A DNA stretch of 64,000 nucleotides, taken from positions 34,015 to 98,014 of the forward strand of contig CAIJIT010000355.1 in the NCBI GenBank assembly GCA_903820745.1, given 5' to 3'. The DNA comes from an uncultured Burkholderiales bacterium. GTDB taxonomy: Bacteria; Pseudomonadota; Gammaproteobacteria; Burkholderiales; Burkholderiaceae_C. Each line of letters begins with the position of its first letter. Within the stretch, counting starts at the first letter, position 1. Made by a program: the position numbers and the translations under genes. This document shows, piece after piece, positions 14,304 to 60,139 of the stretch. The notes beneath the pieces are model-generated. The model saw nothing but the letters and a program-made list of their open reading frames with translations, was not told where the DNA came from and ran no database searches.

Positions 14304-14321
14304 ATCTGCCAAACGGACTAG
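14304..14321. promoter_or_regulatory. Candidate regulon operator (7-4-7 dyad)
   Basis: ATCTGCC-AAAC-GGACTAG. The right half matches the RGACKAW half-site seen before hsaC, hsaA and ksi; the left half matches at 5 of 7 positions. It lies about 160 bp upstream of the kinase-like gene in a 269-bp gap after the DUF1254 gene, where a promoter for the kinase/unknown/MFS unit would be expected. Confidence 0.45.
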
Positions 14322-14414
14322 ATTGAAATCAGGCAAGGCCGCGACGCTGGATCGCGGCTCGATCGAGCTTGCACGGCAGCGCAAGCGGCGAACGGACCAG
14401 GCGATCTCCGGTGC

Positions 14415-15818
14415 TCAAGGTCGTTCGCGCAGCGGCGCCAGCTTGTAGCTGCCATCGAACACCGACCGCGCCGGCTCATAGATCCGCAGCACCAGGGAAA
14501 ACGGCTCTGTGCCGACCGGCAGCCAGTTGCTGCGCCCTTCGGGCGGCTCGGTCTGCTGGATGAAGAGATCGAGCGAGCCGTCCTTGTTCCATTGGAGCCC
14601 GGGGCTGCGGTCGCCGATGCTGTAGCGCCGCAGCGGGTTTTCGATCAGGGTAAAGCGCTGCAGGTCATAGGCGCTCAGCGACCAGAATGCGCCTGCAGGT
14701 GGCAGCTCATCCGGCAACAGATGCAGGACATAACGCTTGGCGCCGCTCATCAACTGCCCGGCGTCGTCGACCGTCTTGGCAGCGTAAGTGCTTTCTTCGG
14801 GCCGGTTGGCATAGCCGCCATAGGCGACGCCGGCGCGCATCAGGTAGTCATGACCGTAGTCCGCCAGGCCGAGCGGGAAGATCCAGCCATTGCGGACATC
14901 GGGCAATTTGCGCTGCGAACTGGCGCGCAGCATGGCCTGGCCATCCTTGATCGCCTGCAACAGACCGCGACGGCTCGCCTCGTCGAGGCCCTGCGGGTTG
15001 AAGTCGGGGCCTGCTCCGATACCGATCTGCTTGAACAAACCCAGCAAGGCCGCCTCGTCGGGCCGCGCCGCGTTGCGTTTCAGCCAGCGGTCAAGCAGGC
15101 TGAAGAATTCCAGCCCGCCGATCGGATCGAGCGGCGCGGCCGACTGTTGCGGCGGCATTGCCGAGGGTGGCATGCCGGGACTGAATTGCGACAGCGGCGC
15201 CGCCCAGAAGCCTCGCACCAGTGCCAAGGCAGCGGGAAAGTCGGCAGCACCGCCGACCAGCAGGCGGCCGAGAATCCAGACCTGCTGGGTCGCCATCGGT
15301 ACCGGTTTCACCCCGGCTGGCAAGGTGCCGGAAAACCCGGGGCCGACCAGCGCGAAATACTGTTCGGCGGTGCCGGTGGTGCGGCGGCCCAGATGGGTGA
15401 CCTCGTTGAAGAAATCGGTAATGGCCAGCGTGTAATAGCGCCCGGCAGTATCGGGCGCCCGCACGATGACAGGCTCGTTCGCGAGATCGAACCAGCCACC
15501 GAAATACAAGGTGTCGCTGTTAGGCGCGCGCAGATTGCCGACGGTCTCCGGCGTCATCAGCCCCTCATAGCGGTGGAAATGATTCAACGGCGCATAGGCA
15601 GGCTGGTCGGCCATGACCCGGTGCGTCTCGTTGTGCATCTGGCGCGACATGTCGACGATCGGATAGCCCCAGAGGTAGGCCAGGGTGCCGACATGGTGAG
15701 CCAACTGTTCGCGGATCAGCGCCTCAGACTGCGCGCGGGGGTCGTTTTGCTCTGCCCGAACTGCCGGCAATGCCAGGGCAAGGGCCAGAAGGGCCAGCAG
15801 CCAGCGACGGATTGACAT
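14415..15818 (-). CDS. DUF1254/DUF1214 exported protein
   Basis: A 467-residue secreted protein. I start it at ATG 15818 with AAGGAA upstream, which yields a clear signal peptide (RRW, then a Leu/Ala-rich core, then AVRAEQ). The longer frame runs back through the acyl-CoA dehydrogenase gene and has no support. The N-terminal half shows the DUF1254 pattern (AYLWGYPIVDMSRQMHNETH, NLRAPNSDTLYFGGWFDL, GRYYTLAITDFFNE). The C-terminal part shows DUF1214 (PPAGAFWSLSAYD, NPLRRYSIGDRSPGLQWNKDGSLDLFIQ split by short gaps). Function of these domains is not established. It is the last gene of the minus-strand unit that begins at the thiolase, so it may act on the side chain or on an outer substrate. Confidence 0.8.
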   Translation of the reverse strand: MSIRRWLLALLALALALPAVRAEQNDPRAQSEALIREQLAHHVGTLAYLWGYPIVDMSRQMHNETHRVMADQPAYAPLNHFHRYEGLMTPETVGNLRAPNSDTLYFGGWFDLANEPVIVRAPDTAGRYYTLAITDFFNEVTHLGRRTTGTAEQYFALVGPGFSGTLPAGVKPVPMATQQVWILGRLLVGGAADFPAALALVRGFWAAPLSQFSPGMPPSAMPPQQSAAPLDPIGGLEFFSLLDRWLKRNAARPDEAALLGLFKQIGIGAGPDFNPQGLDEASRRGLLQAIKDGQAMLRASSQRKLPDVRNGWIFPLGLADYGHDYLMRAGVAYGGYANRPEESTYAAKTVDDAGQLMSGAKRYVLHLLPDELPPAGAFWSLSAYDLQRFTLIENPLRRYSIGDRSPGLQWNKDGSLDLFIQQTEPPEGRSNWLPVGTEPFSLVLRIYEPARSVFDGSYKLAPLRERP

Positions 15819-15876
15819 GCCTGAAGATTCCTTGGGATTGCGGCTTCTTGCGGGTGATGATCGGGTTGCCTGCATG

Positions 15877-18276
15877 TCACCTGGACAACTGATTGAACGG
15901 CACGCCCTTGTCGCTGCGCGGCTCGGGCGCCAGGCCCAGCACGCGCTCGCCGATGCTGTTGCGGATGATCTCGTCGGTGCCGCCGGCGATGCGCATGCCG
16001 GCCGCTCCGAACCAGAGCCGCTCGACCAGGGCAAAGCCCTCGCCCAGCTCACTCGCTGCCAGCACACCGCGCTGGCCCTGCAGATCGATGGCGAAGTAAC
16101 TGAATGACTGCAAGGTGGCGGCGGCGACGTTCTTGGCGCCGCTCATTTCCGGACCCGGCTCGCGGCCCTTGCTCAAGGCGGTCAGCGCCCGGCATTGCAA
16201 CAACCACAGTGCCTGGGCGTCGAGGTAGAGATTGGCCATCCGTTCGCGCATGCGGCCGTCTTGCAGCGCGCTGGCGCCGAACAGCCGGGCCTCGCGCAAC
16301 ATCTGCGCCGCATTGCGCCAGAGTTCGGCCGGCATCACACCACCGATCGCTAGGCGCTCGCTCATCAAACCGGTCAGCGTGACCTTCCAACCCGCGCCGA
16401 TGGCGCCAACCCGCTGTCCATCGGGAACGAAGACATCCTCGAAAAATACTTCATTGAATTCCGATTCGCCGCCCGCTTGACGGATTGGCCGCACGCTGAC
16501 GCCTGGGCTTTTCATGTCGATGAAAAAAGTCGTCAGCCCCTCGAACTTCGGCACATCGGGGTTGGTCCGGGTCAGCACCAGACCGAACTCGGCGAACTGG
16601 GCCAGCGAGGTCCAGACCTTTTGTCCATTGATCAGCCAGCCCTCACGCCCATCGCTGCAGCGGACAGCCTTGGTTCGCACCATGCCGAGGTCCGAACCAG
16701 CACCCGGTTCGGACAGCAACTGACACCAGAGGTTCTCGCCGCGCAGCGCCGGCGCGATATGGGTGGCGCAGACCTCGGGACTTGAATGGGCCATCACCGA
16801 AGGAATCACCATGCCCAGGCTGACATTGAAAAAACCGGTCGGCAAGTTGAAACGGCCCTCCTCCTGGCGCCAGATCAGCTCCTGCATCGGCGTGCCGCCG
16901 CGTCCGCCCAGGGCTTGGGGCCAGGTGATGGCACCAAAGCCGGCATCGGCTTTGGTCGCCTGCCATTGCCTGGCCGCTTGCAGTCGCAAGGCGGGGCTCA
17001 AGTTCGGGCCGAAACTGTCATCGGGCCGGGTTTTGAGCAAGGCGTTGGCCGTCAGCCAGCTGCGACATTCGGCGCGGAATTGCGCTTCATCGGCTGAATC
17101 ATCGAAGTCCATCGCCTCCGAGTCAGCTTGGCTGCGTGAGCTCGCTGTTGCTTCGGGCGCGTCGAGCCTGGCCTCCAGTTCGCCGGCCAGTCGTTCCCGC
17201 CAGACATGCTCATTGCCGAGCAAGACCGCTTGCTGGCGCGCGCGGCGATAGAACAAATGGCAGTCGAGTTCCCAGGTGTAGCCCATGCCGCCATGGACAT
17301 GCAGGTTCTCCTGCGCCATCAGTGTCAAGGCCTGGCTGGCCGCCACCCGCGCTGCTGCCGCCGCTGCCGGCAGTTCAGGTGCGCCACCCGGCTGCTCGAC
17401 ATCCGCCGCCAGCGCCCAGGCACCGTAATAGCAATGCGCCCTGGCCATCTGGTTGGCGGTGTAGCGGTCGGCCAACTTGTGCTTGATGCCCTGGTAGGAG
17501 CCGATCGTGCGGCCGAATGCCTTGCGCTCGCGGGCATAGGCTGCGGCCATCTCCAGCGCGGCATCGGCCGCACCGATCTGTTCGAAAGCCAGCAGCACGG
17601 CAGCGCGGTCGCGCACCCGCTGCAACAGTGCCAGCGCGTCATAGCCGCCATCGAGTCGCTCGGCCGGGCAGCCATCCATGGCCCATTGGGCAAATGGTTT
17701 GGCCGGATCCAGGGTCGCCAGCAAGCGCCGCTCAACCCCGCTGGCCAGATCGCTGTGGACGAACAGCAGTTCGCCTTGGGCATCGGTTGCCAGCAGCACC
17801 GCCCATTGTGCGACCATGCCGTCGGCCACCAGCGGCGCCTGGCCGCTCAGGCTGCCGCCGTCAAAGCGCGGCAAGCTGTCATGATCTATTTCCCCGTCGA
17901 GTGGCGCGGCCAGAGTCCCAATCTGCCCCGCAGCAACCGCTGGCAACCAGCGCTGCTGCTGCGCCTGGCTGCTGCCCAGCATCACCGCCTGGGCGGCCAG
18001 ATAAAGCGTCGAGGCCAAGGGCACCGGACTGAGCTGGCGGCCAATTTCCTCGGCCGCAACGCAGAGCTCCATCGCACCCAGGCCTATGCCATCGCAATCG
18101 TCAGGCAGCATCAGCGCAGTCACGCCTTGTTCGGTCAGACCCCGCCAGATGGCTTGGGCATGGCTGCCCTGCTTGTCTATCAATTCGCGTGACAGCCCCA
18201 GCGGCGACTCCTTGCCGAGGTATTTACGCAAGCTGTCGCGCAGCAGGTTCTGGTCTTCGGAAAAATCAAAATTCAT
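15877..18276 (-). CDS. Fused double acyl-CoA dehydrogenase (799 aa)
   Basis: Two complete acyl-CoA dehydrogenase domains in one chain. The first (about residues 1-370) starts MNFDFSEDQNLLRDSLRKYL and carries ARERKAFGRTIGSYQGIKHKLAD and LHVHGGMGYTWELD. After a linker rich in Ala, Ser and Glu (about 370-395), the second (about 395-799) carries LLSEPGAGSDLGMVRT, INGQKVWTS, ESEFNEVFFEDVFVPD and IAGGTDEIIRNSIGERVLGL. Steroid acyl-CoA dehydrogenases usually work as alpha2beta2 complexes of two different chains; here the two types appear joined. It is followed by the DUF1254 gene and preceded by a GMC oxidoreductase gene, in a beta-oxidation operon, suggesting side-chain acyl-CoA dehydrogenation. 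Confidence 0.88.
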   Translation of the reverse strand: MNFDFSEDQNLLRDSLRKYLGKESPLGLSRELIDKQGSHAQAIWRGLTEQGVTALMLPDDCDGIGLGAMELCVAAEEIGRQLSPVPLASTLYLAAQAVMLGSSQAQQQRWLPAVAAGQIGTLAAPLDGEIDHDSLPRFDGGSLSGQAPLVADGMVAQWAVLLATDAQGELLFVHSDLASGVERRLLATLDPAKPFAQWAMDGCPAERLDGGYDALALLQRVRDRAAVLLAFEQIGAADAALEMAAAYARERKAFGRTIGSYQGIKHKLADRYTANQMARAHCYYGAWALAADVEQPGGAPELPAAAAAARVAASQALTLMAQENLHVHGGMGYTWELDCHLFYRRARQQAVLLGNEHVWRERLAGELEARLDAPEATASSRSQADSEAMDFDDSADEAQFRAECRSWLTANALLKTRPDDSFGPNLSPALRLQAARQWQATKADAGFGAITWPQALGGRGGTPMQELIWRQEEGRFNLPTGFFNVSLGMVIPSVMAHSSPEVCATHIAPALRGENLWCQLLSEPGAGSDLGMVRTKAVRCSDGREGWLINGQKVWTSLAQFAEFGLVLTRTNPDVPKFEGLTTFFIDMKSPGVSVRPIRQAGGESEFNEVFFEDVFVPDGQRVGAIGAGWKVTLTGLMSERLAIGGVMPAELWRNAAQMLREARLFGASALQDGRMRERMANLYLDAQALWLLQCRALTALSKGREPGPEMSGAKNVAAATLQSFSYFAIDLQGQRGVLAASELGEGFALVERLWFGAAGMRIAGGTDEIIRNSIGERVLGLAPEPRSDKGVPFNQLSR

Positions 18277-18297
18277 CGAAAAAAATCCTGTCCAAGA

Positions 18298-19938: not shown

Positions 19939-19940
19939 TG

Positions 19941-25639: not shown

Positions 25640-26818
25640 TTATTCGGCCTCGTTCTCGCCGGACCCGAGCAGTACCACCGAATTCAGGAAGATCCGCACC
25701 AACTCGGTCTGGCGCCGCACGCCGGTCTTGGAGAAGATCGAACGCAAATGTGCACGCGCCGTGTTGCGCCGGATATTCAGCGCTTCGGCCGCTTCTTCCA
25801 GCGACAGGCCATTGGCCAACTGGATCGCCAGCGCGGTTTCGGCCGGTGTCAGCTGGAACAACTGCTGTGCCAGCCGCACTGGCGGATAGGCTTTGCCTTC
25901 GGCGTCGCGCACGAAGATCACCACGCTCGGCCGATGTTTGCCTTCGGTCCATTGATCGGGAGAAATCGCCTGGACCACCACGCCCCAGCTGACCTTGCCC
26001 GAGGGGCGGCTCACCGACATCGCTTCGATCAGCGACACCTTGCCCGCCACCTGCTGAATCAGCGCATCGCGCACCAGGCGCTGCAATTTGCGCCCATCGG
26101 TGGCGTAAGTGGCTTCGAGCTGGTTGCCGGCAATCCGCAGACCATCGTTCATCTCGAGGATGCCCTTGGCCATCGCATTGCATTCCTGGATCTTGCCGGT
26201 CTCGTCGAGCACGATCACGCCGACCATCAACTGCGCCATTGCATGGCTGTACAACGAGCTGACGCGGCGGTCATGGTGTACCGCTTCATGCAGATTGAGC
26301 GCGCGCCGCAGATGCGGAATCAGACGTTCGGCGAGCAGCCGTTCGGCAGCGCTGAACGATTCCTTGCTTTCGGGCCGGGTCAGCCGGAAGCCGTAGACGC
26401 TGCCGTCCTTGGTGCTGATGTCGCAGGCCATCACATGGAAGACCCCGCGCGGCTCACACCAATCGCGGTAATAGGTGGTGGCGCGCCAATCGGATTCGGA
26501 CAGGATGTCGCCCATCGTGACCAGACGGTCAACCGGCAGATTGGAAAATGGGCTGATTTCGATCAGCGGATTGTTGTTGCCCGGAATCGGCACACCACCG
26601 CTGGCCGAGACGATCAGCCCGAGGTCGCTGCCGCCGCCGGCGCGGACGATCAATGAAGCGAAATTGGCATCGAACTCGTTGCGGATCGACTCTAGGCAGC
26701 GCGTCCACTGCGAGCTATCCATGGCGGCTTCGTAAATCAAGCCCAGCATCTGGCTGAAGCGGTCAAAGTTGATTTGATCGCTCACGGTCGCTGTTGCTGG
26801 TTTCACGGCCTTGGTCAT
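25640..26818 (-). CDS. LuxR-type regulator, TeiR-like
   Basis: A 392-residue regulator. The C-terminal LuxR helix-turn-helix (about 315-380) reads FQLTPAETALAIQLANGLS through EEAAEALNIRRNTARAHLRSIFSKTG. The N-terminal ~300 residues are PAS/GAF-like without a receiver aspartate motif. The length and architecture match TeiR, the LuxR-type activator of testosterone catabolism in Comamonas testosteroni (family knowledge). The gene is embedded between the thiolase and an SDR in the catabolic run, so it may be induced with it. It is the best candidate in the window for the protein binding the 7-4-7 dyads, but that link is inference; the MarR-like gene at 59584 is the other candidate. Confidence 0.78.
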   Translation of the reverse strand: MTKAVKPATATVSDQINFDRFSQMLGLIYEAAMDSSQWTRCLESIRNEFDANFASLIVRAGGGSDLGLIVSASGGVPIPGNNNPLIEISPFSNLPVDRLVTMGDILSESDWRATTYYRDWCEPRGVFHVMACDISTKDGSVYGFRLTRPESKESFSAAERLLAERLIPHLRRALNLHEAVHHDRRVSSLYSHAMAQLMVGVIVLDETGKIQECNAMAKGILEMNDGLRIAGNQLEATYATDGRKLQRLVRDALIQQVAGKVSLIEAMSVSRPSGKVSWGVVVQAISPDQWTEGKHRPSVVIFVRDAEGKAYPPVRLAQQLFQLTPAETALAIQLANGLSLEEAAEALNIRRNTARAHLRSIFSKTGVRRQTELVRIFLNSVVLLGSGENEAE

Positions 26819-28578: not shown

Positions 28579-29364
28579 TCAGGCCTGTTGCGAGCTGACC
28601 GACACCACTTCGCCGGTCATATAGGACGAGTAATCGCTGGCCAGAAAAACCATCACATTGGCAATTTCCCAGGGCTCGGCAGCGCGCCCGAAAGCCTCTT
28701 TGGCCGACAACTGGTCGAGCAACTCCTCGGAAGCGGATTTCTTCAGGAAGGCATGGATCGCGATCGATGGCGACACCGCATTGATGCGCACGCCAAAAGG
28801 TGCTGCTTCCATCGCGGCGCAGCGCGTCAGCGCCATCACGCCGGCCTTGGCGGCGGCGTAATGGGCTTGCTCGACCTGCGCCCGCCAGCCCAGTACCGAG
28901 GCATTGTTGACGATCACGCCGGATCCGCGCGGTTGCATCAGCTTCAAGGCCGCACGCGTCATGCGAAACGTACCGGTCAAGGTCACGTCGATGACCTTGT
29001 GCCATTCTTCATCGGCCATGTCGACGATGTTGCGACTGCCGCCAAGACCGGCATTGTTGATCAGCACATCGATGGCACCGAGCTTGGCTTGGGCCATGCT
29101 CATCAGCGCATCGACCTGGGTTTGCTGGGTCACATCGCAAAGCTGGCCCCAGACTTCCTGCAAGCCGGTCTCGCGCCGGATCGCCTCGACCGCTTCATTC
29201 AAGCGCCTCTCATGCACATCGGAAATCAGCAAGGCACGCGCGCCTTCCTCGGCGCAGCGCTTGGCTGCTGCAAAACCGATGCCGGCGCCTGCGGCTGCGG
29301 TGACCAGGACTGACTTTCCCTTCAGCAGGCCATGGGCGGGAACATAGTGGGGTGCTGGATTCAT
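28579..29364 (-). CDS. ipdF: IpdF-like short-chain dehydrogenase
   Basis: A 261-residue SDR. The N-terminus HGLLKGKSVLVTAAAGAGIG, the NNASVLGWRAQ segment, YAAAKAGVMALTRC, FGRAAEPWEIA and SDYSSYMTGEVVSVS closely match my memory of mycobacterial IpdF (Rv3559c), including the unusual TAAAGxGIG cofactor loop. IpdF works on the ring-C keto/hydroxyl intermediate of HIP-CoA catabolism. The neighbour upstream is a FadE30-like gene, the same neighbour as in Mycobacterium tuberculosis, which strengthens the call. ATG 29364 is used. A candidate operator lies 56 bp upstream (29420-29437), so ipdF may also have its own promoter. Confidence 0.85.
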   Translation of the reverse strand: MNPAPHYVPAHGLLKGKSVLVTAAAGAGIGFAAAKRCAEEGARALLISDVHERRLNEAVEAIRRETGLQEVWGQLCDVTQQTQVDALMSMAQAKLGAIDVLINNAGLGGSRNIVDMADEEWHKVIDVTLTGTFRMTRAALKLMQPRGSGVIVNNASVLGWRAQVEQAHYAAAKAGVMALTRCAAMEAAPFGVRINAVSPSIAIHAFLKKSASEELLDQLSAKEAFGRAAEPWEIANVMVFLASDYSSYMTGEVVSVSSQQA

Positions 29365-29419: not shown

Positions 29420-29437
29420 ATCGTCTTGTCGGACGAT
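29420..29437. promoter_or_regulatory. Regulon operator candidate upstream of ipdF
   Basis: ATCGTCT-TGTC-GGACGAT, with both 7-bp halves forming a 6-of-7 inverted repeat. It occupies the 82-bp gap between the fadE30-like and ipdF genes, 56 bp before the ipdF start codon. This is the same position relative to the start as the sites before hsaC and ksi. Confidence 0.55.
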
Positions 29438-29446
29438 AAATCTTAT

Positions 29447-31654
29447 TCAGCGCGGCATGCCAAGCGCGCGTTCGGCAATCAGGTTCAGCTGGATCTCGTT
29501 GCTGCCGGCATAGATGGTATCGGCGCGGCTGTACAGCCAAACCTGGCGCAGTCGCTGCGCGGCCACATCGGCGTCGATCAGATTGGCGCGTGGCCCCAGT
29601 ACATCGGCAGCCAGGCGACCGAAATCGCGATGCCAATTCGACCAGGCATATTTGGCGACAAAGGATTCGGGACTGCCTGCCGCGCCGCTCAGCACCCGCA
29701 GCGCATTCGCGCGCAATGCCTGCAAGCCAAGGGCTGCTGACGCGATGCGCTGTGCCAGCACCGACTGCTGGGTCAAGCCGTCGCGGCGCGCTTGGCTTAA
29801 CAGCAGCTGCAATTCATGCTCGAACTGCGCTTGTTGGCCCAGCGTCGAAACTCCGCGCTCGAAGCCCAGCAAGTCCATCGCGACCTTCCAACCCTGGCCC
29901 AGCTCGCCCAGATGCAGCGAGGCTTCGGTGCGCGCCGAGTCGAAGAACACTTCATTGAATTCAGCGCTGCCGGTCATCTGGCGGATCGGACGGATCGTGA
30001 TGCCGGGCTGACGCAGGGGCACCAGCAACAGGCTCAAGCCGCGATGGCGCTGCGATCCCGCTTCGGTGCGCGCAAGCACGAAGATCCAGTCGGATTCCTG
30101 CGCCCAGGAGGTCCAGACCTTCTGGCCATTGATGATCCATTCGTCGCCTTCGCGCTTGGCACGGGTCTTCACATTGGCCAGATCCGAACCGGCGTCGGGC
30201 TCGGAATAACCCTGGGCCCAGTAACTGGTGCCGGCCCGGATGCCGGGCAAAAAGCGCTGCTGCTGGGCCGGTGTGCCATAGGCCATCAGCGTCGGCGCGA
30301 GCAATTGTTCGCCGATATGCCCGATGCGCCCAGGTCCACCGGCGCGCACATAAGCCTCGTGGAACGCCACCTGCTGGGCCAAGGGTAGATCGCGCCCGCC
30401 ATGGGCTGCAGGCCAGCCCATGCCGACCCAACCGCCCGCAGCCAGGCATTGCTCCCAACGCTTGGCCAGAGCCGGCGCGAAGCTGTCGTCGCCAGGACCC
30501 TGGCAGCCGCGCATGGCGAGGAATTCCCCGCTCAAATGCTGTTCAAGCCAGGCATGGACTTCGGCATTGAAAGCCTCCTCGGGCAATTCATGCGGCAAGG
30601 CCTCCTGCAGCAATTCAGCCGCCACCTGATCCAGCCAGCGTGTCGACATGCCGAACCATTGGCTGTTGCTTTGGGCACGTTTGAAGTACAGATGGGGGTC
30701 GTATTCCCAGCAAAAGCCAACGCCGCCATGCAACTGGATTGCTTCCTGGGCGCAGAACTGGGCCGCTTCGTTCGCCAGGCAGCGGGCGGCTGCGACTGGT
30801 TGCAAATCGCTTGTGGCCGCGGCGGCGTAGAACGCCGAGCGCGCCAACTCGATGCTGACCATCATCTGTGCGCAGCGATGCTTGATGGCCTGGAAGGCCG
30901 CGATCGGCTGGCCGAACTGGACCCTGCCGCTGACATAAGACAGACTCAGATCAAGGCATTGCTGGGCCACCCCGACCTGTTCGGCCGCCAGCACGGTCGC
31001 GGCCGTCAAGCGCAGCCGCGCGAGCTTATCTTCCAGCGGCTTGCCGCGCGCCAGACAATCCGCCAGCAAGATGCCGGTCATCTCGACGCAGGCCGCAGGC
31101 CGGCTTGCATCATGCAATTGCAGAGCTGTGATCGACAGGCCTTGTGCATCGCGCGGCAAGGCAAACAAGAGCAGTTCGCCATCGGCCAGCCTGGCCGTGA
31201 TCAGCAGCAGATCGACCGATCCAGCGGCCTGGAACTGGTCAATCCGGCCATCCAGGCGCCAGCCTCCAGCGACAGGCAAGGCCTGCACGGGATCGGTCGA
31301 AAACGTCGAAATCAAGCTGCCGTCGGCCAAGCCGGGCAGCCATTGCGCTGCATCTGCGCCGAGTTCGCCCAGCAAACTGGTGCCCAGCACAACGCTTTCG
31401 AACCAGGGGACATAAGCGAGCCGGCGGCCGAGTTGCTCGGCGATCAGACATAACTCGAGTGTGCCCATGCCGAGGCCGCCCTGGGCTTCAGAGAGCTGCA
31501 AGGCGCAGCAGCCGAGGTCAGCGATCTGCTGCCAAAGCTTGCGGTCGATGTCGCCCGCAAGCATTGCAGCGCGCAAGGCGGCTGATGACGCCTGGCCGGC
31601 CAACAGGTCGGCCACCGCCACCTGAATGGCTTGCTGCTCAGGATTCAAGGTCAT
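29447..31654 (-). CDS. Fused acyl-CoA dehydrogenase with FadE30-like C-terminal half
   Basis: A 735-residue chain with two acyl-CoA dehydrogenase domains. The first (about 1-345) has FGQPIAAFQAIKHRCAQMM and IQLHGGVGFCWEYDPHLY. The second (about 355-735) has the FadE30 marks WLEQHLSGEFLAMRGCQGPG, WAQGYSEPDAGSDLANVKT, INGQKVWTS, EFNEVFFDSARTEA, FERGVSTLGQQ and YAGSNEIQLNLIAERALGMPR. FadE30 dehydrogenates a CoA thioester early in HIP catabolism and is a separate protein in actinobacteria. Here it is joined to an N-terminal partner domain. The adjacent ipdF gene supports the assignment. The substrate itself is inferred. Confidence 0.85.
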   Translation of the reverse strand: MTLNPEQQAIQVAVADLLAGQASSAALRAAMLAGDIDRKLWQQIADLGCCALQLSEAQGGLGMGTLELCLIAEQLGRRLAYVPWFESVVLGTSLLGELGADAAQWLPGLADGSLISTFSTDPVQALPVAGGWRLDGRIDQFQAAGSVDLLLITARLADGELLLFALPRDAQGLSITALQLHDASRPAACVEMTGILLADCLARGKPLEDKLARLRLTAATVLAAEQVGVAQQCLDLSLSYVSGRVQFGQPIAAFQAIKHRCAQMMVSIELARSAFYAAAATSDLQPVAAARCLANEAAQFCAQEAIQLHGGVGFCWEYDPHLYFKRAQSNSQWFGMSTRWLDQVAAELLQEALPHELPEEAFNAEVHAWLEQHLSGEFLAMRGCQGPGDDSFAPALAKRWEQCLAAGGWVGMGWPAAHGGRDLPLAQQVAFHEAYVRAGGPGRIGHIGEQLLAPTLMAYGTPAQQQRFLPGIRAGTSYWAQGYSEPDAGSDLANVKTRAKREGDEWIINGQKVWTSWAQESDWIFVLARTEAGSQRHRGLSLLLVPLRQPGITIRPIRQMTGSAEFNEVFFDSARTEASLHLGELGQGWKVAMDLLGFERGVSTLGQQAQFEHELQLLLSQARRDGLTQQSVLAQRIASAALGLQALRANALRVLSGAAGSPESFVAKYAWSNWHRDFGRLAADVLGPRANLIDADVAAQRLRQVWLYSRADTIYAGSNEIQLNLIAERALGMPR

Positions 31655-40409: not shown

Positions 40410-41306
40410 TCAGCCCTGTTGGCCCACCGAAAAATCATGGCCCCACAAGCTCACGCGGGTAAACTCATGGACGATATGTTCCTGCCAGTCGCAGACCGCA
40501 CCGCCATAGCCAAACTCGACATCAAAGCCCGAGGGCGACTGCATGTAGAAGGAAGTCATCTTGTCGTTCGTATGCTGGCCCAAGGTCGCTGTCAGCTTGG
40601 CGCCGTCAGCAGCGCGCCGGTCCATCGCCCGGCCGACTTCAGGCATTGATTCGACTTCAACCATCACATGCACGCAGCCGCTTTCGACCGGGAAACCGGC
40701 CAATGCCAGGCTGTGATGCCTGGCATTGCCGCAATGGAAGAAATGGATCGGCAGCACCGGTCCGGCATCGCCACCCGGCTTGAAATTGAACAGATCCGAC
40801 AGGCCAAAGCCCATCACATCCTTGACGAAGGCCACCGTGGCTTCGAAATTCGGTGCGGGCAAAACCGTATGTCCCAGGCCCAGATCGCCGGTGATGAAAC
40901 CCGAAACGCCAGTCGGCGAGGCGAAATGCTGGAAGTCGGACTTGAAGCCCCAGACCAGTTCATGCCGGTTGCCCGAAGGATCGACGATCGCAACCAATTG
41001 CTGCACGCAGCGTTTGGCGCACAAGGCCTGATCGCCCAACTCGTAAGCCACGCCCTTGTCTGACAGATGGCCCAGGGCTGACTGGAAAGCTTCCCGGTCG
41101 AGCAATTCCCAGGCGCTGGCGACATAGCCATTGCGACTGCCTGACTGCACCGAAATGCGGAACTGGCGCTCGTCCATCTTCACATGCAGGCCGCCATCTG
41201 GGCTGTCCGACACCATCATGCCCAGCACGTTGTGGGCATAGTCAGACCAGCGCTTCAGGTCGGTGGTTTCAGCAACGATATAAGCCAGTCCACGAATATT
41301 CAGCAT
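40410..41306 (-). CDS. hsaC: HsaC/TesB extradiol dioxygenase
   Basis: A 298-residue type I extradiol dioxygenase with two vicinal-oxygen-chelate repeats. The Fe(II) ligands are visible as His 146 (LGLGHTVLP), His 213 (CVHVMVEV) and Glu 264 (FDVEFGYGG), with active-site His 197/198 (RHHSLAL). Spacing and length match HsaC and Comamonas TesB, which cleave the catechol formed in ring A of 3,4-DHSA between the hydroxylated carbon and its neighbour. GGAG lies 7-8 bases before ATG 41306. It is the first gene of the ~16.5-kb minus-strand run, and two adjacent dyads (41348-41383) lie just upstream. Confidence 0.88.
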   Translation of the reverse strand: MLNIRGLAYIVAETTDLKRWSDYAHNVLGMMVSDSPDGGLHVKMDERQFRISVQSGSRNGYVASAWELLDREAFQSALGHLSDKGVAYELGDQALCAKRCVQQLVAIVDPSGNRHELVWGFKSDFQHFASPTGVSGFITGDLGLGHTVLPAPNFEATVAFVKDVMGFGLSDLFNFKPGGDAGPVLPIHFFHCGNARHHSLALAGFPVESGCVHVMVEVESMPEVGRAMDRRAADGAKLTATLGQHTNDKMTSFYMQSPSGFDVEFGYGGAVCDWQEHIVHEFTRVSLWGHDFSVGQQG

Positions 41307-41365
41307 GGGAAAACTCCAGTCATTGGGGATATGCCCTGATTATTCGGCTCGTCCCATGAGCAAAC

Positions 41366-41383
41366 ATCGTCCGATGAGACTAA
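41366..41383. promoter_or_regulatory. Regulon operator candidate upstream of hsaC
   Basis: ATCGTCC-GATG-AGACTAA, nearly identical to the site upstream of hsaA (58980; one spacer base differs). It ends 60 bp before the hsaC start codon. A weaker 7-4-7 copy, CTCGTCC-CATG-AGCAAAC at 41348-41365, abuts it exactly, giving a tandem pair. Confidence 0.6.
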
Positions 41384-43961: not shown

Positions 43962-44690
43962 TCAAAGAAAGGCACTGCCGCCGTTGACCGCCAGATTCTG
44001 GCCGGTGACAAAGCCGGCATCGCCACTGGCCAGGAAAAGTGCACCGCGCGCGATGTCTTCAGGCTCGGCCATGCGGCCCATCGGCACGCCCTTGATGATC
44101 GCGTCGGCCCATTCCTGGGGAATGCCAGCCATCATCGGCGTATTCGTCGGCCCCGGCACCAAGGTATTGACGCGGATGCCATGGCCGGCGAGTTCCTTGG
44201 CCATGCTGCGGGTCAAGCCCATCAAGGCGGCCTTGGAGGCGCAGTAATGGGCGGGACCATCGCCGCTGGCCGCCGCAGTGCTCGCCACATTGATGATGCT
44301 GCCCTTGGTGCCAACCTTCTGCATCGCCCGCACAGCCGCCCGGGCGCAATAGAAAGCACCGGTCAGATTGACCCCGATGACGCGCGTCCAGGTTTCGTCG
44401 CTGATGTCGGCAAAAGCGTCGACCGAACCGACGCCGGCATTGTTGACCAGCACATCGACCCGGCCATAACTCGCCAGCAAGGTCTCGAACAGGGCGTTGA
44501 CCTCAGCGCTGTCGCCGATATTCACCTTGTAAGCGGCGCCAGCAAGGCCGGCCATGGTTTCCTCGGCGGCGGCCAGATTGACGTCGACTGCCACCACGGT
44601 GGCGCCTTCGGCAGCGAACATTCTGGCCATGGCCCGGCCCATGCCTTGTCCGGCACCGGTGATGACGGCGATCTTGTCTTTCAGTCTCAT
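43962..44690 (-). CDS. Short-chain dehydrogenase/reductase
   Basis: An SDR of 242 residues. Marks are ITGAGQGMGRAMARMFAAEGATVVAVD, NNAGVGS, Ser in INVASTAAASG and YCASKAALMGLTR, with a GFVTGQNLAVNGGSAFL end. AAGGAG lies eight bases before ATG 44690. It heads a minus-strand unit of four genes (two SDRs, NTF2-like, OYE) and is divergent from ketosteroid isomerase; a shared operator candidate lies between them. Likely a steroid or bile-acid hydroxyl dehydrogenase (inference). Confidence 0.85.
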   Translation of the reverse strand: MRLKDKIAVITGAGQGMGRAMARMFAAEGATVVAVDVNLAAAEETMAGLAGAAYKVNIGDSAEVNALFETLLASYGRVDVLVNNAGVGSVDAFADISDETWTRVIGVNLTGAFYCARAAVRAMQKVGTKGSIINVASTAAASGDGPAHYCASKAALMGLTRSMAKELAGHGIRVNTLVPGPTNTPMMAGIPQEWADAIIKGVPMGRMAEPEDIARGALFLASGDAGFVTGQNLAVNGGSAFL

Positions 44691-44766
44691 GCTTGAGCTC
44701 CTTTGGGGCTGCACCAGGGGGGCGCAGCATTCTGGGCTCAGCTTAGTCAGGGCCGGAATTGCCCTC

Positions 44767-44784
44767 ATCGTCCAAGCGGACGAT
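44767..44784. promoter_or_regulatory. Regulon operator candidate between SDR and ksi
   Basis: ATCGTCC-AAGC-GGACGAT, a perfect 7-bp inverted repeat with a 4-bp spacer. It lies 60 bp before the ksi start and 76 bp before the divergent SDR start, so one site could serve both directions. Confidence 0.65.
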
Positions 44785-45309: not shown

Positions 45310-46212
45310 ATGCAGACCCTGACCCATCTACAGCGGCTCGAGGCCGAGAGCATTCACATCATGCGCGAGGTTGTCGCTGAATGCGAAAACCCGGTCATGC
45401 TGTATTCGGTCGGCAAGGATTCGGCCACGATGCTGCACCTGGCAAGAAAGGCGTTCTATCCCGCTCCACCGCCCTTCCCGCTGCTGCATGTAGACACCGC
45501 CTGGAAATTTCGTGACATGTACGCCCTGCGCGACCGCATGGCCAGCGAGATGGGCATGGACTTGCTGATCCACCGCAACCCCGAAGCCGAGGCGCTGGGC
45601 ATCAACCCCTTCGAACATGGTTCGCAACTGCATACGGACATGTGGAAGACACAGGGTTTGAAACAGGCGCTGGACAAATATGGCTTTGACGCGGCATTTG
45701 GAGGCGCCCGCCGCGACGAGGAAAAATCACGCGCCAAGGAACGCATCTTTTCTTTCCGCACCGCACAGCATCACTGGGATCCGAAAAACCAGCGGCCCGA
45801 GCTCTGGCGTTTGTACAACGCCCGCAAGAACAAGGGCGAAAGCATCCGCGCATTTCCGATTTCCAACTGGACCGAACTCGACATCTGGCAATATATCCAA
45901 CTGGAAAACATCCCGATCGTGCCGCTCTATTTCGCCGCATTGCGGCCCGTGGTCGACCGGGACGGCATGCTGGTGATGGTCGACGATGAGCGCATGCCGC
46001 TGCGACCTGGCGAAACGCCGATGATGAAACAGGTGCGCTTTCGCACCCTGGGCTGCTACCCGCTGACCGGCGCCGTCTTGTCGAACGCGACCACCTTGCC
46101 GCAGGTCATCCAGGAAATGCTGCTGACGACGACCTCGGAGCGCCAGGGACGAATGATCGATCACGACAGTGCGGCGTCGATGGAGAAGAAGAAGCAAGAG
46201 GGGTATTTCTGA
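45310..46212 (+). CDS. cysD: Sulfate adenylyltransferase subunit 2 (CysD)
   Basis: A 300-residue PAPS-reductase-fold protein. The ATP pyrophosphatase P-loop [49 protein letters not shown] and the conserved end [17 protein letters not shown] are diagnostic. With CysN it adenylates sulfate to APS. It is followed by cysNC after one base. It is divergent from nothing nearby and follows ksi on the same strand by 99 bp, most likely with its own promoter. Role: assimilatory sulfate activation, not a known steroid step. Confidence 0.95.
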
Positions 46213-46213
46213 G

Positions 46214-48130
46214 ATGGCACATGTTTCAGAACTGATCGCAAGCGACATCGATCGCTACTTGCAGCAGCATCAGACCAAGAGCCTGCTTCGTTTCATCACC
46301 TGCGGCTCGGTCGATGACGGCAAGAGCACGCTGATCGGCCGCTTGCTGTTCGAATCGAAAATGCTGTTCGAGGACCAACTCGCAGCGCTGGAAGCTGATT
46401 CGAAAAAGCTCGGCACCCGCGGCGAAGAGATCGACTATGCGCTGCTGATGGACGGCCTGGCTGCCGAGCGCGAACAGGGCATCACGATCGACGTGGCCTA
46501 CCGCTATTTCTCGACAGACCGGCGCAAGTACATCGTTGCCGATACGCCGGGGCATGAACAGTACACCCGCAATATGGTCACCGGCGCATCGACGGCCGAC
46601 CTGGCAATCATCCTGATCGATGCGCGCAAGGGCATGCTGGTGCAAACACGCCGGCATAGTTATCTGGTGTCCTTGATCGGTGTACGCCATCTGGTGCTGG
46701 CGATCAACAAGATGGATCTGGTCGACTACTCACAGCAAGTATTCGAACGCATCCGCAGCGAATACCTCGAATTCGCCAGCAAGATCGGCATAGAAAAGAT
46801 CACCGTGATGCCGATTTCCGGGGTCAAGGGAGACAACATCGTCGACCAGAGCATCAACACGCCTTGGTACAGCGGACCGACCTTGATGCAGCACCTGGAA
46901 ACGGTGGAAATCGACGAGCAGCGGCTGCAAGGCCTGGCTTTTCGCATGCCGGTGCAATGGGTGAATCGCCCCGATCTTGATTTTCGTGGCTTTGCCGGCA
47001 CGATTGCCTCCGGATCGATCAAGCCGGGTGAGCGCATTCGAGTCTCGCCCTCAGGCCGGGAATCGACCGTCGCACGCATCGTCAGCGCCGACGGCGACCT
47101 CGAGCAGGCCGTTGCCAACCAGTCGGTGACGTTGACGCTGACCGATGAAGTCGACATCTCGCGTGGTGATGTGATTTCGCGCATCGAGGCGCCTGCTCCA
47201 TCGGCCGACCAGTTCGAGGCAACGATCGTCTGGATGAGCGATCAGCCAATGCTGCCCGGCCGCAACTATCTGATGAAGATCGGCACCAAGACGGTCACCG
47301 CCACGGTGATGCCGCTGAAGTACAAGGTCAACGTCAACACGCTCGAACATATGGCGGGCACGAAGTTGGAACTCAACGAGATCGGTGTCGTCGGACTCGA
47401 ACTTGACCGTGCGATCGCCTTCGATGCTTACCAGGAGAACCGCGATACCGGCGGTTTCATCCTGATCGACCGACGTTCGAACAGCACCATCGCAGCCGGC
47501 ATGCTGCACTTCGCTTTGCGCCGCGCTGACAACATCCACTGGCAAGCGCTCGAAGTCGACAAGACTGCGCGCAGGGCGATGAACAGCCATGGCAGCGCCG
47601 TGATCTGGTTCACCGGGCTCTCGGGTGCGGGCAAATCCACCGTGGCCAATCTGCTCGAAAAGCGGCTGCATGCGGCCGGCAAGCGGACCTATCTGCTCGA
47701 CGGCGACAACCTCAGGCATGGACTCAACAAGGACCTCGGCTTCACCGCGACCGACCGTGTGGAGAACATCCGCCGCGTCGCCGAAGTCGCCAAATTGATG
47801 GTCGATGCCGGCATCATCGTGCTGACGGCCTTCATCTCGCCTTTCCGGGCCGAGCGCCAGATGGCGCGGGACCTGATGGCCCAAGGCGAGTTCATCGAGG
47901 TCTTTGTCGACCTGCCGCTGGCGGTGGCCGAGAGCCGGGACCCGAAAGGTCTCTACAAGAAAGCCCGCAGCGGCCTGCTGAAGAACTTCACCGGCATTGA
48001 TTCACCCTACGAAAAACCCGAAAACCCCGAGATCCATCTCAACACCGATGCCTGCACGATCGAGGCAGCAGCCGAACGGATCTACCAGCATCTGCTGGAA
48101 AGCGGTTTGCTGGATGGGCCGGCCGTTTGA
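46214..48130 (+). CDS. cysNC: Bifunctional sulfate adenylyltransferase subunit 1/APS kinase (CysNC)
   Basis: A 638-residue fusion. The N-terminal GTPase CysN part has G1 [10 protein letters not shown]3 DTPGHEQYT and G4 NKMDLVDY, followed by beta-barrel domains. From about residue 450 an APS kinase domain has its own P-loop [26 protein letters not shown] and [13 protein letters not shown]. It makes APS and then PAPS. The ATG at 46214 follows the cysD stop by one base. The fused form is common in proteobacteria. It converges with the DHH gene, with 18 bp between stops. Confidence 0.95.
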
Positions 48131-57662: not shown

Positions 57663-57688
57663 GGTATTCCCCTTCAAAGGCAGCGGAT

Positions 57689-58876
57689 TCAGACGAAGGG
57701 GTCCATATTCGGCAGACCCAGCATCACCCCACCGTGAGCGCGGGCATAGGTGTCGGTGTTGTTGGCGATATGGCCGCGCGCCACATGCAGGTCGCGGAAG
57801 ATACGCTCGATCGGATTCGACTTGTAAACACCGCCCGCCGCACAGGCGCGCATGATCTCGTTGACCGCTTCAGCGCAGATCTTCGGCACCTGGGACGATT
57901 GGGCGCGCTGCATCAGCCGCTCTTCGACCGGCATCCGCTCGCCGGTCCTGGCGCAATCGACGATGCGCTGGTAATTGCGCATCAGGACCAGTTGCAACTG
58001 GTCAGTGGCCATCATCGCTTCGCTGACAGCCAGCTGCGCGTTGACATCCTCGGCAGTCTTGGAGCCATGTTTGCCGACAAAGCTGGCCGCACGCAGACGG
58101 AAGCTGGCGATCGCACCATTGGTGGCGCCGATGCAGGCGGTCGAGACCGCGCGCTGGAACACCTGGGTGAATGGAATCTTGTAAAGCCACTCCGGATTGG
58201 TCTGGCGCCCGGGGCAACCAGCGTCGCTGTGGTCGTTGGTGCGGTGGGTGCGGTGCTCGGGTACAAAGGCGTTTTCCACCACGATGTCATGGCTGCCCGT
58301 GGCGCGCAGTCCGAGCACATCAAAGTTGTGAACGATCTGGAAATCAGCCTTCGGCAACAGGAAGGTGCAATGCTCGATGCCCGACCCATCCTTCTTCGGC
58401 AACAGGCCGCCGAGCAGGATCCATACGCAATGTTCGACGCCGCTGCTCCAACTCCAGCGGCCATTGAAGGTATAGCCGCCATCAACCTTGTCAGCTTTGC
58501 CGGTCGGCATATAGGTCGAGGCGGTCAGAATTGTCGAATCATTGGCCCAGACATCCTGTTGTGCCTGTTCTGGAAAGAGCGGAAGCTGCCAGTTGTGCAC
58601 ACCGACCACGCCGTAGATCCAGGCCGTCGCCATGCAGCCTTCAGCCAAGGCCATCTGCACACTGTAAAACACCCGCGGATCCATTTCATAGCCGCCCCAG
58701 CGCTTCGGCTGCAGCACCTTGAAAAACCCGGCGGCCTTCATCTCGGCGATTGTTTCCTTCTGCACCAGGCCGGCATCCTCGGCGGCGCGGGCGCGTTCGG
58801 CCAGTCTTGGCGCCATGGCTCTGGCGCGCTCGATCAACTCGAGCGCCAGCGGGGTCAAATAATCGTTTGCTGTCAT
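57689..58876 (-). CDS. hsaA: HsaA-like 3-HSA monooxygenase, oxygenase component
   Basis: A 395-residue protein of the acyl-CoA-dehydrogenase-fold flavin monooxygenases (HsaA/HpaB-like class D), the length of HsaA. Segments RARAAEDAGLVQKETIAEMKAAGFFKVLQPKRWGGYE (parts), YGVVGVHNWQLPLFPEQAQ, WSWSSGVEHCVW and the C-terminal IERIFRDLHVARGHIANN are typical. With FADH2/FMNH2 from HsaB it hydroxylates the phenolic ring A of 3-HSA to the catechol cut by HsaC. ATG 58876 has GGAG eight bases upstream; the longer frame is unsupported. It heads the minus-strand unit, divergent from hsaB. Confidence 0.87.
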   Translation of the reverse strand: MTANDYLTPLALELIERARAMAPRLAERARAAEDAGLVQKETIAEMKAAGFFKVLQPKRWGGYEMDPRVFYSVQMALAEGCMATAWIYGVVGVHNWQLPLFPEQAQQDVWANDSTILTASTYMPTGKADKVDGGYTFNGRWSWSSGVEHCVWILLGGLLPKKDGSGIEHCTFLLPKADFQIVHNFDVLGLRATGSHDIVVENAFVPEHRTHRTNDHSDAGCPGRQTNPEWLYKIPFTQVFQRAVSTACIGATNGAIASFRLRAASFVGKHGSKTAEDVNAQLAVSEAMMATDQLQLVLMRNYQRIVDCARTGERMPVEERLMQRAQSSQVPKICAEAVNEIMRACAAGGVYKSNPIERIFRDLHVARGHIANNTDTYARAHGGVMLGLPNMDPFV

Positions 58877-58979
58877 GCTGAATCTCCGGATGCTGCCGCT
58901 GGAATGCGGTCGATGGTTGTACTTGGGCAAGGCATAACCTTGCGACGATTGGATGCTCTCACCGGGCGCGCCGACCTTC

Positions 58980-58997
58980 ATCGTCCGATCAGACTAA
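58980..58997. promoter_or_regulatory. Regulon operator candidate in the hsaA-hsaB divergent region
   Basis: ATCGTCC-GATC-AGACTAA, one spacer base different from the hsaC site. It is 103 bp before hsaA and 114 bp before hsaB in a 235-bp non-coding gap, so one site could control both directions. Nothing else distinctive is seen in the gap apart from a weaker half-match at 59044-59061. Confidence 0.6.
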
Positions 58998-59111
58998 AGA
59001 TCCGCCCTGCGGGATGGCGCCAAGCTTAGCTTCTGCCGATCTAGTCCGACTGAGGGTTTTCTACAGGATGGCGACCGGGCAAGGTAGAGGTCTGAATTCT
59101 GGAGACCGCCG

Positions 59112-59633
59112 ATGACCCACCCGAACAGCAGCTTCGACCCCAAGGCTTTTCGCCGCGCCCTGGGGCTGTTTGCCACCGGCGTGACGATCGTCACCACCCG
59201 CGCGGCCGACGGCACACCCGTCGGAATCACCGCCAACAGCTTCAATTCGGTCTCGCTGCAGCCGCCGATGGTGTTGTGGAGTCTGGCCAAGAATGCGCGC
59301 AGCCTGGCCTCATTCAGCGAATGCGGTTACTGGAATGTGCATATCCTGTCGAACGAGCAGGAAGCCCTGTCGAACCGATTTGCCCGCGCTGGCGAAGATA
59401 AATTTGCCGGCATGGCCCTCGATCAGTCCGCCAACGGCGTGGCCTTGATCCCCGACTGCACCGCACGTTTTCAATGCCGCAACGCTTTCCAATATGAGGG
59501 GGGCGACCACATCATCTTTGTCGGCGAGGTGATTGAATATGACGCCTCGCAGCGCCCGCCCCTGCTCTATGTCACTGGCGACTATGCGCTGGCGGCGCAA
59601 GGCGGCACCGATCTCGACCGAAACCCAGGCTGA
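59112..59633 (+). CDS. hsaB: HsaB-like flavin reductase
   Basis: A 173-residue FMN/FAD reductase of the HpaC/HsaB group. FRRALGLFATGVTIVTTRA, GITANSFNSVSLQPPMVLWSL, SLASFSECGYWNVHIL and DHIIFVGEVIEYD are characteristic. It supplies reduced flavin to HsaA, whose gene is divergent across a short promoter region. GGAG at 59101-59104 precedes ATG 59112. Usually hsaA and hsaB are in one direction; divergent placement here is a small departure. It overlaps the MarR-like gene. Confidence 0.88.
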   Translation: MTHPNSSFDPKAFRRALGLFATGVTIVTTRAADGTPVGITANSFNSVSLQPPMVLWSLAKNARSLASFSECGYWNVHILSNEQEALSNRFARAGEDKFAGMALDQSANGVALIPDCTARFQCRNAFQYEGGDHIIFVGEVIEYDASQRPPLLYVTGDYALAAQGGTDLDRNPG

Positions 59634-60093
59634 TCCGAGCGCTTCGGTCTATTCCGAAAATCTGCTCGGTTATCTGCTGGGCCGCGCCCATTACCAGTTC
59701 CTCGACAAGTTACGCCGACCTTTGGCCGAACGCGGTCTGACCGAGGCTGATTTCTTTGTGCTGTCCGTTTTGATCGTCAGCCAGCCCTTGACGATCGAAC
59801 AGATTGCTGCCCATGTCGCCTATACCGGCATCGACATCGGTGCAGTGGCGCTGCAACCATTGCTGACTCGGGGGCTACTGGAACCTGATGCGCAGAACCC
59901 GCAGGCTCTGCGCCTGAGCCCGGCGGGCAGCGACGCCATCTTGCATGTGCTGGCGGCGGCCAAGGCGGTTGAAGCCGACCTGATCGACCGCATCGGCGAG
60001 ATGGAGGCGGCTTCGCTGCGCAACCTGCTCAAACAGGCGATCAGCGCCACCGACCCGGGCCTGCCCAAGCTCTGGCAGGCGTCCAAGGAATAG
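59584..60093 (+). CDS. MarR-family regulator-like protein
   Basis: About 169 residues with a winged-helix pattern: LGYLLGRAHYQFLDKLRRPLAERGLTEADFFVLSVLI (in parts), then LTIEQIAAHVAYTGIDIGAVALQPLLTRGLLEPDAQNPQALRLSPAGSD (in parts), which follows the MarR recognition and wing layout. The start is uncertain: ATG 59584 overlaps the last 50 bp of hsaB and has no clear ribosome site, suggesting translational coupling. MarR proteins often repress the neighbouring catabolic genes and respond to an aromatic or acyl-CoA ligand, so hsaB/hsaA control is plausible. It is one candidate for the dyad-binding protein. Confidence 0.72.
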   Translation: MRWRRKAAPISTETQADPSASVYSENLLGYLLGRAHYQFLDKLRRPLAERGLTEADFFVLSVLIVSQPLTIEQIAAHVAYTGIDIGAVALQPLLTRGLLEPDAQNPQALRLSPAGSDAILHVLAAAKAVEADLIDRIGEMEAASLRNLLKQAISATDPGLPKLWQASKE

Positions 60094-60121
60094 CACCACT
60101 GTTCTCGCTCGGGGCGGATTT

Positions 60122-60139
60122 CTAGTCTTTTCAGACGAT
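60122..60139. promoter_or_regulatory. Regulon operator candidate upstream of NTF2-like gene
   Basis: CTAGTCT-TTTC-AGACGAT; on the minus strand it reads ATCGTCT-GAAA-AGACTAG, like the hsaC and hsaA sites. It lies 94 bp before the start at 60234, in the 140-bp gap after the MarR-like gene. Confidence 0.55.

What the first reader, a model, noticed from the sequence alone, without database searches (positions are those of the whole stretch)
14304..60139. A shared 18-bp dyad marks promoters across the steroid cluster
Six well-separated non-coding positions carry the same 7-4-7 dyad: 14304 (ATCTGCC-AAAC-GGACTAG), 29420 (ATCGTCT-TGTC-GGACGAT), 41366 (ATCGTCC-GATG-AGACTAA), 44767 (ATCGTCC-AAGC-GGACGAT), 58980 (ATCGTCC-GATC-AGACTAA) and 60122 (CTAGTCT-TTTC-AGACGAT). 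All lie between genes, mostly 56-114 bp before hsaC, ipdF, ksi, hsaA/hsaB and an NTF2-like gene. It differs from the mycobacterial KstR palindrome as I know it. This looks like the operator of one regulator controlling the whole regulon, most simply the TeiR-like LuxR protein at 25640 or the MarR-like protein at 59584.
Basis: partly seen in the sequence, partly recalled or inferred. Interest (0 to 1): 0.75.

Follow-up and report, generated by a model that had tools for sequence, protein, structure and literature searches.

The report
Shared activator box of steroid genes
Five steroid-gene promoters in this bacterial DNA, and matching promoters in dozens of related bacteria, carry the same 18-base inverted repeat, which is predicted to be the docking site through which the known steroid-response activator TesR/TeiR likely switches the pathway on.

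Summary
Real for five of the six sites (29420, 41366, 44767, 58980, 60122); 14304 scores like background. The refined element is an oriented dyad plus one base, TTAGTCY-N4-RGACGATG, strict half facing the gene. A matrix trained on other genomes ranks all five above every coding hit in the window. In this genome the strict pattern lies at 19 places, 14 judged non-coding. It is conserved upstream of hsaA in Comamonas, other Burkholderiales and Glaciecola/Aliiglaciecola, and at a divergent CoA-transferase/ligase-hsaC promoter in other Gammaproteobacteria. Aligned on the dyad, promoters show a -10-like box at one spacing (33 of 50; best shuffle 10), putting the dyad centre near -42.5 without a consensus -35: class II activator geometry. 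The likeliest reader is the LuxR-type protein 25640-26818, positional counterpart of TesR/TeiR: it co-occurs with close HsaA in the same 5 of 399 genomes, and its gene lies behind a dyad. The MarR-like protein is absent from one dyad-bearing genome and doubtful in two. Against: TeiR is described in print as a polar membrane kinase; hsdA/KSI are steroid-induced without a dyad found near KSI. Binding is untested. No description of the box was found in the held library; the original TeiR paper is not held.

The parts
29420..29437 (-). Dyad ATCGTCC-GACA-AGACGAT (read on the minus strand), upstream of the SDR gene 28579-29364 and, further on, thiolase and the LuxR-type regulator gene
   Evidence: Matrix 20.5 (+) and 17.8 (-); weaker counterpart (14.1, one core mismatch) before the orthologous SDR gene of C. 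testosteroni NFYY023
41366..41383 (-). Dyad TTAGTCT-CATC-GGACGAT upstream of hsaC
   Evidence: Matrix 30.6; counterpart before hsaC of C. testosteroni NFYY023 (28.4)
44767..44784 (-). Symmetric dyad ATCGTCC-N4-GGACGAT upstream of an SDR gene
   Evidence: Matrix 28.4 (-) and 25.2 (+); counterpart before the orthologous SDR gene of C. testosteroni NFYY023 (28.1)
58980..58997 (-). Dyad TTAGTCT-GATC-GGACGAT upstream of hsaA
   Evidence: Matrix 33.9; conserved upstream of hsaA
60122..60139 (+). Dyad CTAGTCT-TTTC-AGACGAT upstream of a SnoaL/NTF2-like gene
   Evidence: Matrix 24.8; the same 18 bases stand before a TonB receptor gene on contig C338
29393..29398 (-). -10-like box GATGAT (predicted)
   Evidence: Fixed spacing
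41339..41344 (-). -10-like box AATAAT (predicted)
   Evidence: Fixed spacing
44740..44745 (-). -10-like box TAAGCT (predicted)
   Evidence: Fixed spacing
58953..58958 (-). -10-like box GAGCAT (predicted)
   Evidence: Fixed spacing
60162..60167 (+). -10-like box GATGCT, one base further from the dyad than in the others (predicted)
25640..26818 (-). LuxR-type regulator, counterpart of TesR/TeiR; predicted reader of the dyads
   Evidence: GerE HTH; 62% identical protein in the same gene order in C. testosteroni NFYY023; co-occurrence
57689..58876 (-). hsaA, predicted target (start inferred)
   Evidence: NF045629 matches at 364.7 bits, below its cut-off of 450
40410..41306 (-). hsaC-like extradiol dioxygenase, predicted target
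   Evidence: HsaC model 260.2 bits, below its cut-off of 450
28579..29364 (-). SDR gene, predicted target (start inferred)
   Evidence: NF005880 above cut-off
43962..44690 (-). SDR gene, predicted target (start inferred)
60234..60704 (+). SnoaL/NTF2-like gene, predicted target (start inferred)
   Evidence: PF13577
59599..60093 (+).
   Evidence: No Pfam match at 1e-5, only TrmB at 0.11; conserved in 32 of 67 loci

Best explanation
The dyads are most likely class II activator boxes of the LuxR-type steroid regulator TesR/TeiR (the protein at 25640-26818), which would bind them as a dimer centred near -42.5 and recruit RNA polymerase to promoters that have a -10-like box but no consensus -35. Shown: a shared oriented element, its conservation across species, its fixed spacing to a -10-like box, its concentration at steroid operons, and its co-occurrence with the LuxR-type gene. 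Inferred: that this protein binds it, that a steroid or steroid metabolite is the signal, and that the -10-like box marks the true start of transcription. Predicted consequence: because the regulator gene lies behind dyad 29420, the regulator would amplify its own production.
For: Matrix trained elsewhere picks the five sites first. Strict pattern at 19 places in the genome, 14 judged non-coding. 35 of 38 tested loci with HsaA at least 60% identical have the pattern at hsaA; 39 of 39 with enough upstream DNA by matrix, partly circular. -10-like box at fixed spacing in 33 of 50, 28 of 43, 25 of 36 and 20 of 29 promoters as look-alikes are removed more strictly, best of 1000 shuffles 10, 10, 9 and 8. 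Close HsaA (E below 1e-120) and the LuxR-type protein (E up to 1e-60) in the same 5 of 399 genomes. C. testosteroni counterpart 62% identical in the same gene order; papers say TesR/TeiR is needed to induce tesB-tesR, tesA1-tesG and tesA2-ORF18 (passages). The LuxR gene itself is testosterone-induced (4.88 log2).
Against: No binding data. Passages call TesR/TeiR a polar membrane protein that acts through kinase activity, which would allow an indirect role with another DNA-binding protein. Other regulators of C. testosteroni steroid genes (PhaR, a LuxR repressor, TetR, BRP, HsdR, RepA/RepB) were not tested as readers. Co-occurrence cannot separate regulators that travel with the pathway, and only the best 4 candidates per genome were scored. 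Proteins with HTH regions only 45-65% identical go with the dyad in Gammaproteobacteria, while HdN1 (30% identical protein) has no dyad in its locus. hsaB is induced though the only dyad in its intergenic region faces hsaA; KSI (and hsdA) are induced with no hit of 9 or more between 2801165 and 2813648 around KSI. Site 60122 has its -10-like box one base off.
Confidence: 0.78

Rival explanations
1. The dyad is the operator of the MarR-like protein (59599-60093) next to hsaB, which would repress the regulon until a metabolite releases it.
For: The protein is conserved beside hsaB in 32 of 67 loci and found in 23 of 25 genomes at E up to 1e-3; 18-bp dyads also suit MarR proteins (recalled).
Against: Absent from G282, which has dyads before hsaA and hsaC; only 8e-7 and 3.3e-4 in G011 and G013, whose loci L113 and L119 carry a dyad. 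Placement at about -42.5 without a -35 consensus suits an activator.
Confidence: 0.1
2. The dyad is read by another steroid-responsive regulator acting downstream of TesR/TeiR, which would itself be a membrane-bound kinase.
For: Passages describe TeiR as a polar membrane kinase setting off phosphorylation.
Against: The protein has a GerE HTH and residues N352, T353, R355, A356, H357, L358 and R359 of its HTH are invariant or nearly so in 25 proteins. No second regulator with this distribution was found, but I tested only the MarR-like one.
Confidence: 0.1
3. The element works in the messenger, as a leader structure or start-codon element.
For: It is oriented towards the gene and contains an ATG that opens a mechanical ORF in four of five cases.
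Against: The commonest form pairs A (position 3) with G (position 16), a mismatch in an RNA stem. A -10-like box lies downstream of it at fixed spacing, so it would not be transcribed. Inferred real starts lie 56-104 bp downstream.
Confidence: 0.02

Closest known systems
TesR/TeiR of Comamonas testosteroni (LuxR-type positive regulator of steroid degradation)
   Same: LuxR-type HTH, 62% identity to the C. testosteroni protein at the end of the cluster that begins at hsaC/tesB; published dependence of the same clusters (passages).
   Different: In print it is described as a polar membrane kinase (passages), and no operator was found in the papers searched; here a direct DNA-binding role and a box are proposed. 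PMC6895838 (passage) cites that tesR-like genes occur only in C. testosteroni strains; searches find relatives in many other genomes.
TraR and its tra boxes (class II LuxR-type promoters)
   Same: 18-bp inverted repeat; placed about -45, partly overlapping -35; one box can serve divergent operons (passages of PMC3907764).
   Different: Different sequence; no autoinducer-binding domain among the Pfam matches up to E = 1.
EdcR (Caenibius tardaugens) and KstR (Actinobacteria) operators
   Same: One palindrome used by several steroid-degradation promoters.
   Different: EdcR palindrome TnnCnnTACnAnTnGTAnnGnnA overlaps the -10 box as a repressor site (passage of PMC8700777); KstR is a TetR-type repressor, its palindrome recalled as TnnAACnnGTTnnA.

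Membership tests
TesR/TeiR orthologue | LuxR-type (GerE) HTH at the C-terminus | tested here: met
   PF00196 at 323-376, above its cut-off
TesR/TeiR orthologue | Gene position at the end of the tesB-tesR cluster | tested here: met
   Same gene order in window and C. testosteroni NFYY023; that NFYY023's gene is tesR is inferred from order and literature
TesR/TeiR orthologue | Needed for induction of steroid genes | not testable with these tools
   Only reported for C. testosteroni (passages)
Class II LuxR-type activator box | 18-bp inverted repeat | tested here: met
Class II LuxR-type activator box | Centre near -42 to -45, overlapping the -35 position | tested here: met
   From the -10-like box at fixed spacing; transcription starts not mapped
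Class II LuxR-type activator box | Bound by a LuxR-type dimer | not testable with these tools
   No binding data
Quorum-sensing LuxR/TraR protein | Autoinducer-binding domain | tested here: not met
   Not among 11 Pfam matches up to E = 1; a weak PAS match instead
MarR operator (rival) | MarR-like gene present wherever the dyad is used | tested here: not met
   Absent from G282, doubtful in G011 and G013
EdcR operator | Palindrome TnnCnnTACnAnTnGTAnnGnnA | tested here: not met
   Compared by eye with the passage

The most novel reading that the evidence does not exclude
This is the general on-switch of aerobic steroid degradation in Beta- and many Gammaproteobacteria: one TesR-read box at -42.5 that stayed recognisable across classes while the operons behind it were rearranged, that travelled with the pathway into Glaciecola/Aliiglaciecola, and that sits before tesR itself, giving a self-amplifying steroid switch for uptake, side-chain and ring degradation.
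Probability: 0.5. Interest if true: 0.7.

Novelty: new member of a known kind. Interest (0 to 1): 0.6.

Why it matters
[quoted passage not shown] A defined box makes the regulon predictable from sequence, flags candidate uptake and side-chain genes, turns TesR action into a simple gel-shift and reporter test, and could serve steroid sensors.

Tried and rejected
Site 14304 as a member: rejected. Start codon or RNA leader: rejected. The count of the strict pattern as proof by itself: rejected, since 312 of 399 genomes of the order have at least one match and the tool's reversed-pattern control is too lenient for coding DNA. An AlphaFold model of the LuxR-type protein (mean pLDDT 72.9, pTM 0.47) gave only weak PDB matches, mainly phytochrome/PAS/GAF proteins, TM-scores up to 0.36 in the 50 rows listed; no ligand claim is made. 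Gene calls in L230 and L236-L238 were partly on the wrong strand and were replaced by tblastn. In one search I labelled several gammaproteobacterial loci as without site; one search showed that six of the eight so labelled (by locus or genome) do carry a dyad elsewhere in the locus. The match at 2797159 of C. testosteroni (18.6, AT-rich DNA beside a transposase gene) was left unassigned. Searches on other regulators as readers were not made.
Full report
What was checked. The six sequences are in the window as written. Five share more than a dyad: read towards the gene they follow TTAGTCY or ATCGTCY, N4, RGACGATG, with the gene-side half and the next G strictest. The sixth, 14304, lacks this and scores 6.9, a background value. 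The ATG inside GACGATG opens a mechanical ORF in four of five cases but is unlikely to be the start: profiles of the SDR and HsaA families begin well inside the ORFs, and my choice of starts (29364, 41306, 44690, 58876, 60234) leaves 56, 60, 77, 104 and 95 bp between dyad and gene.

More than chance. A 20-base matrix trained on 50 sites from other genomes gives seven best hits in the window, all of them the five dyads (two on both strands), 17.8 to 33.9; the best coding hit is 12.7. Markov sequences give 0.03 hits at 16 or more per window, though one of 100 reached 22.7. In the own genome (5.12 Mb, 357 contigs) GTCY-N4-RGACGATG occurs at 19 distinct places. I judge 14 non-coding and five coding; with the longest ORFs taken at face value 9 of 19 lie outside ORFs. 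At an assumed 10-15% non-coding DNA the binomial probabilities are below 2e-8 for 14 and below 1e-3 for 9. Neighbours outside the window: TonB receptor genes on C53 and C338, whose likely signal peptides begin after the dyads; a ChsH2-like and a DUF1214 gene (C338); an SDR/enoyl-CoA hydratase pair (C317); an Oxidored_FMN gene divergent from a DUF1254/DUF1214 gene (C327); and, on the window's own contig, an aldehyde dehydrogenase/AMP-ligase junction and a TauD/beta-lactamase-family divergent pair. The pattern alone is not diagnostic: 312 of 399 genomes of the order have at least one match.

Conservation. One scan with HsaA returned 67 loci from named records, the nearest being Burkholderiales MAGs at 98-99%. 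I gave 58 of the 67 to a pattern check: 35 of 38 with HsaA at least 60% identical have the site at hsaA, and 0 of 20 below 60%. The three misses are L075 (41 bp of upstream DNA), L104 (one mismatch) and L099 (two mismatches). By matrix, 39 of 39 such loci with enough upstream DNA score 16 or more within 300 bp, partly circular because many of them trained the matrix. They include C. testosteroni and, with 78-81% identical HsaA, Glaciecola and Aliiglaciecola, which suggests transfer of pathway and box together. Of the 26 loci below 60%, none has it upstream of hsaA but nine have it elsewhere in the locus; going by record titles all nine are Gammaproteobacteria. In L113 it lies between CoA-transferase genes and an AMP-ligase gene followed by hsaC. 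The other 17 (mostly Alphaproteobacteria, four SAR86, HdN1, an acidobacterium, unclassified; several short) have no score of 16 or more.

Geometry. Aligned on the dyad, 55 non-redundant sites show G40 A41 A42 N A44 T45 and, apart from position 20 beside the dyad, nothing comparable in the flanks. A at 41 with T at 45 occurs in 33 of 50 promoters; with stricter removal of look-alikes 28 of 43, 25 of 36 and 20 of 29; in 1000 shuffles of the downstream flank, best offset each time, the maxima are 10, 10, 9 and 8. Own genome plus C. testosteroni: 15 of 26. In the window it holds for 4 of 5; at 60122 the box is one base further. If these are -11 and -7, the dyad spans -51 to -34, is centred at -42.5, and the -35 position reads ATGANN. 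[quoted passage not shown]

Which protein. The LuxR-type protein 25640-26818 has a GerE HTH and a weak PAS match. C. testosteroni NFYY023 encodes a 62% identical protein with the same neighbours at the end of the cluster that starts at hsaC/tesB, the position of tesR. TesR/TeiR is reported to be needed for induction of tesB-tesR, tesA1-tesG and tesA2-ORF18 (PMC6895838, PMC6678751, passages). Among 399 genomes of the order, HsaA at E below 1e-120 and this protein at E up to 1e-60 occur in the same five (up to 4 candidates per genome scored). In site-bearing Betaproteobacteria other than Pelomonas and G282, and in Glaciecola/Aliiglaciecola, the HTH region is 83-96% identical and the rest 34-63%; Pelomonas is 71/29, G282 65/34, and gammaproteobacterial proteins with 45-65% still go with a dyad. 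The MarR-like protein is conserved too (32 of 67 loci; 23 of 25 genomes) but absent from G282, which has dyads before hsaA and hsaC, and doubtful in G011 and G013. It is also absent from HdN1, which has no dyad in its locus. Against a direct role, passages call TeiR a polar membrane kinase. Other known regulators were not tested.

Link to expression. In 145 kb of C. testosteroni NFYY023 a matrix of 47 sites, made without ten Comamonas/Diaphorobacter loci (two MAGs titled Comamonas sp. lk stayed in) and with the window's sites, finds 13 distinct places at 14 or more. One is inside the enoyl-CoA hydratase gene, one beside a transposase gene. The other 11 lie before hsaA, hsaC, two SDR genes, a thiolase-like gene, a BNR/MMPL pair, DUF1329/DUF1302 genes, and at SDR/enoyl-CoA hydratase, aldehyde dehydrogenase/MFS and MFS/amidohydrolase junctions and an AMP-ligase. 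By gene order and names, counterparts of ten of the 11 in strain JLU460ET are induced 4.2-8.4 log2 after 3 h of testosterone (PMC10637631, section 19 read whole); the thiolase-like gene was not matched. This agrees but discriminates weakly, since only 17 of the table's 93 rows are below 2 or unchanged. The LuxR gene is induced 4.88, with the SDR (5.35) and thiolase (5.07) genes; the site before that SDR gene (14.1) has GAAGAT at the expected spacing. Against: KSI and hsdA (6.67, 7.44) are induced, but around KSI no hit of 9 or more lies between 2801165 and 2813648 (I did not place hsdA by a call), and hsaB is induced (7.77) though the only dyad in its intergenic region faces hsaA.

Literature. 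No held paper contains five core site strings; searches on TeiR, TesR, palindromes and regulons and passages gave no description of such a box. The 2004 TeiR paper is not held, so a prior description there cannot be excluded.

Verdict. A real, conserved promoter element; its reader, TesR/TeiR, is assigned by inference. It is a new member of a known kind (LuxR-type class II activator boxes) and makes control of proteobacterial steroid degradation directly testable.

Noticed in passing
window 45310-48130; L026:9942-12862 and 14343-15536: A PAPS_reduct-domain gene (CysD-like) followed by a GTPase/APS-kinase gene (CysNC-like) occurs twice, once in the steroid window and once on C338 between dyads, there followed by DUF1214 and a sulfotransferase gene: possible sulfation of steroid intermediates.
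   Followed up: no
window 29447-31654 and 15877-18276: Long ORFs that look like two acyl-CoA dehydrogenases fused in one frame; in C. testosteroni NFYY023 the first matches two neighbouring genes.
   Followed up: partly
L032:998-2197 (contig C35), site L032:2314: A second TesR-like protein (37% identity) divergent from an acyl-CoA dehydrogenase gene, with a one-mismatch dyad (matrix 24.7) between them.
   Followed up: partly
L226:14985-18523 (C. testosteroni NFYY023): BNR-repeat gene and MMPL transporter gene with a sterol-sensing-domain match behind a dyad: candidate steroid transport.
   Followed up: no
L083, L084, L089, L090, L092: Glaciecola/Aliiglaciecola HsaA is 78-81% identical to the betaproteobacterial one and carries the same dyad upstream: likely transfer between classes.
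   Followed up: no
window 13072-14178: Phosphotransferase-family (APH, PF01636) protein in the steroid neighbourhood.
   Followed up: no
L239:3978-5588 (C. testosteroni NFYY023): Sulfatase gene beside an ISL3-type transposase in the steroid region.
   Followed up: no
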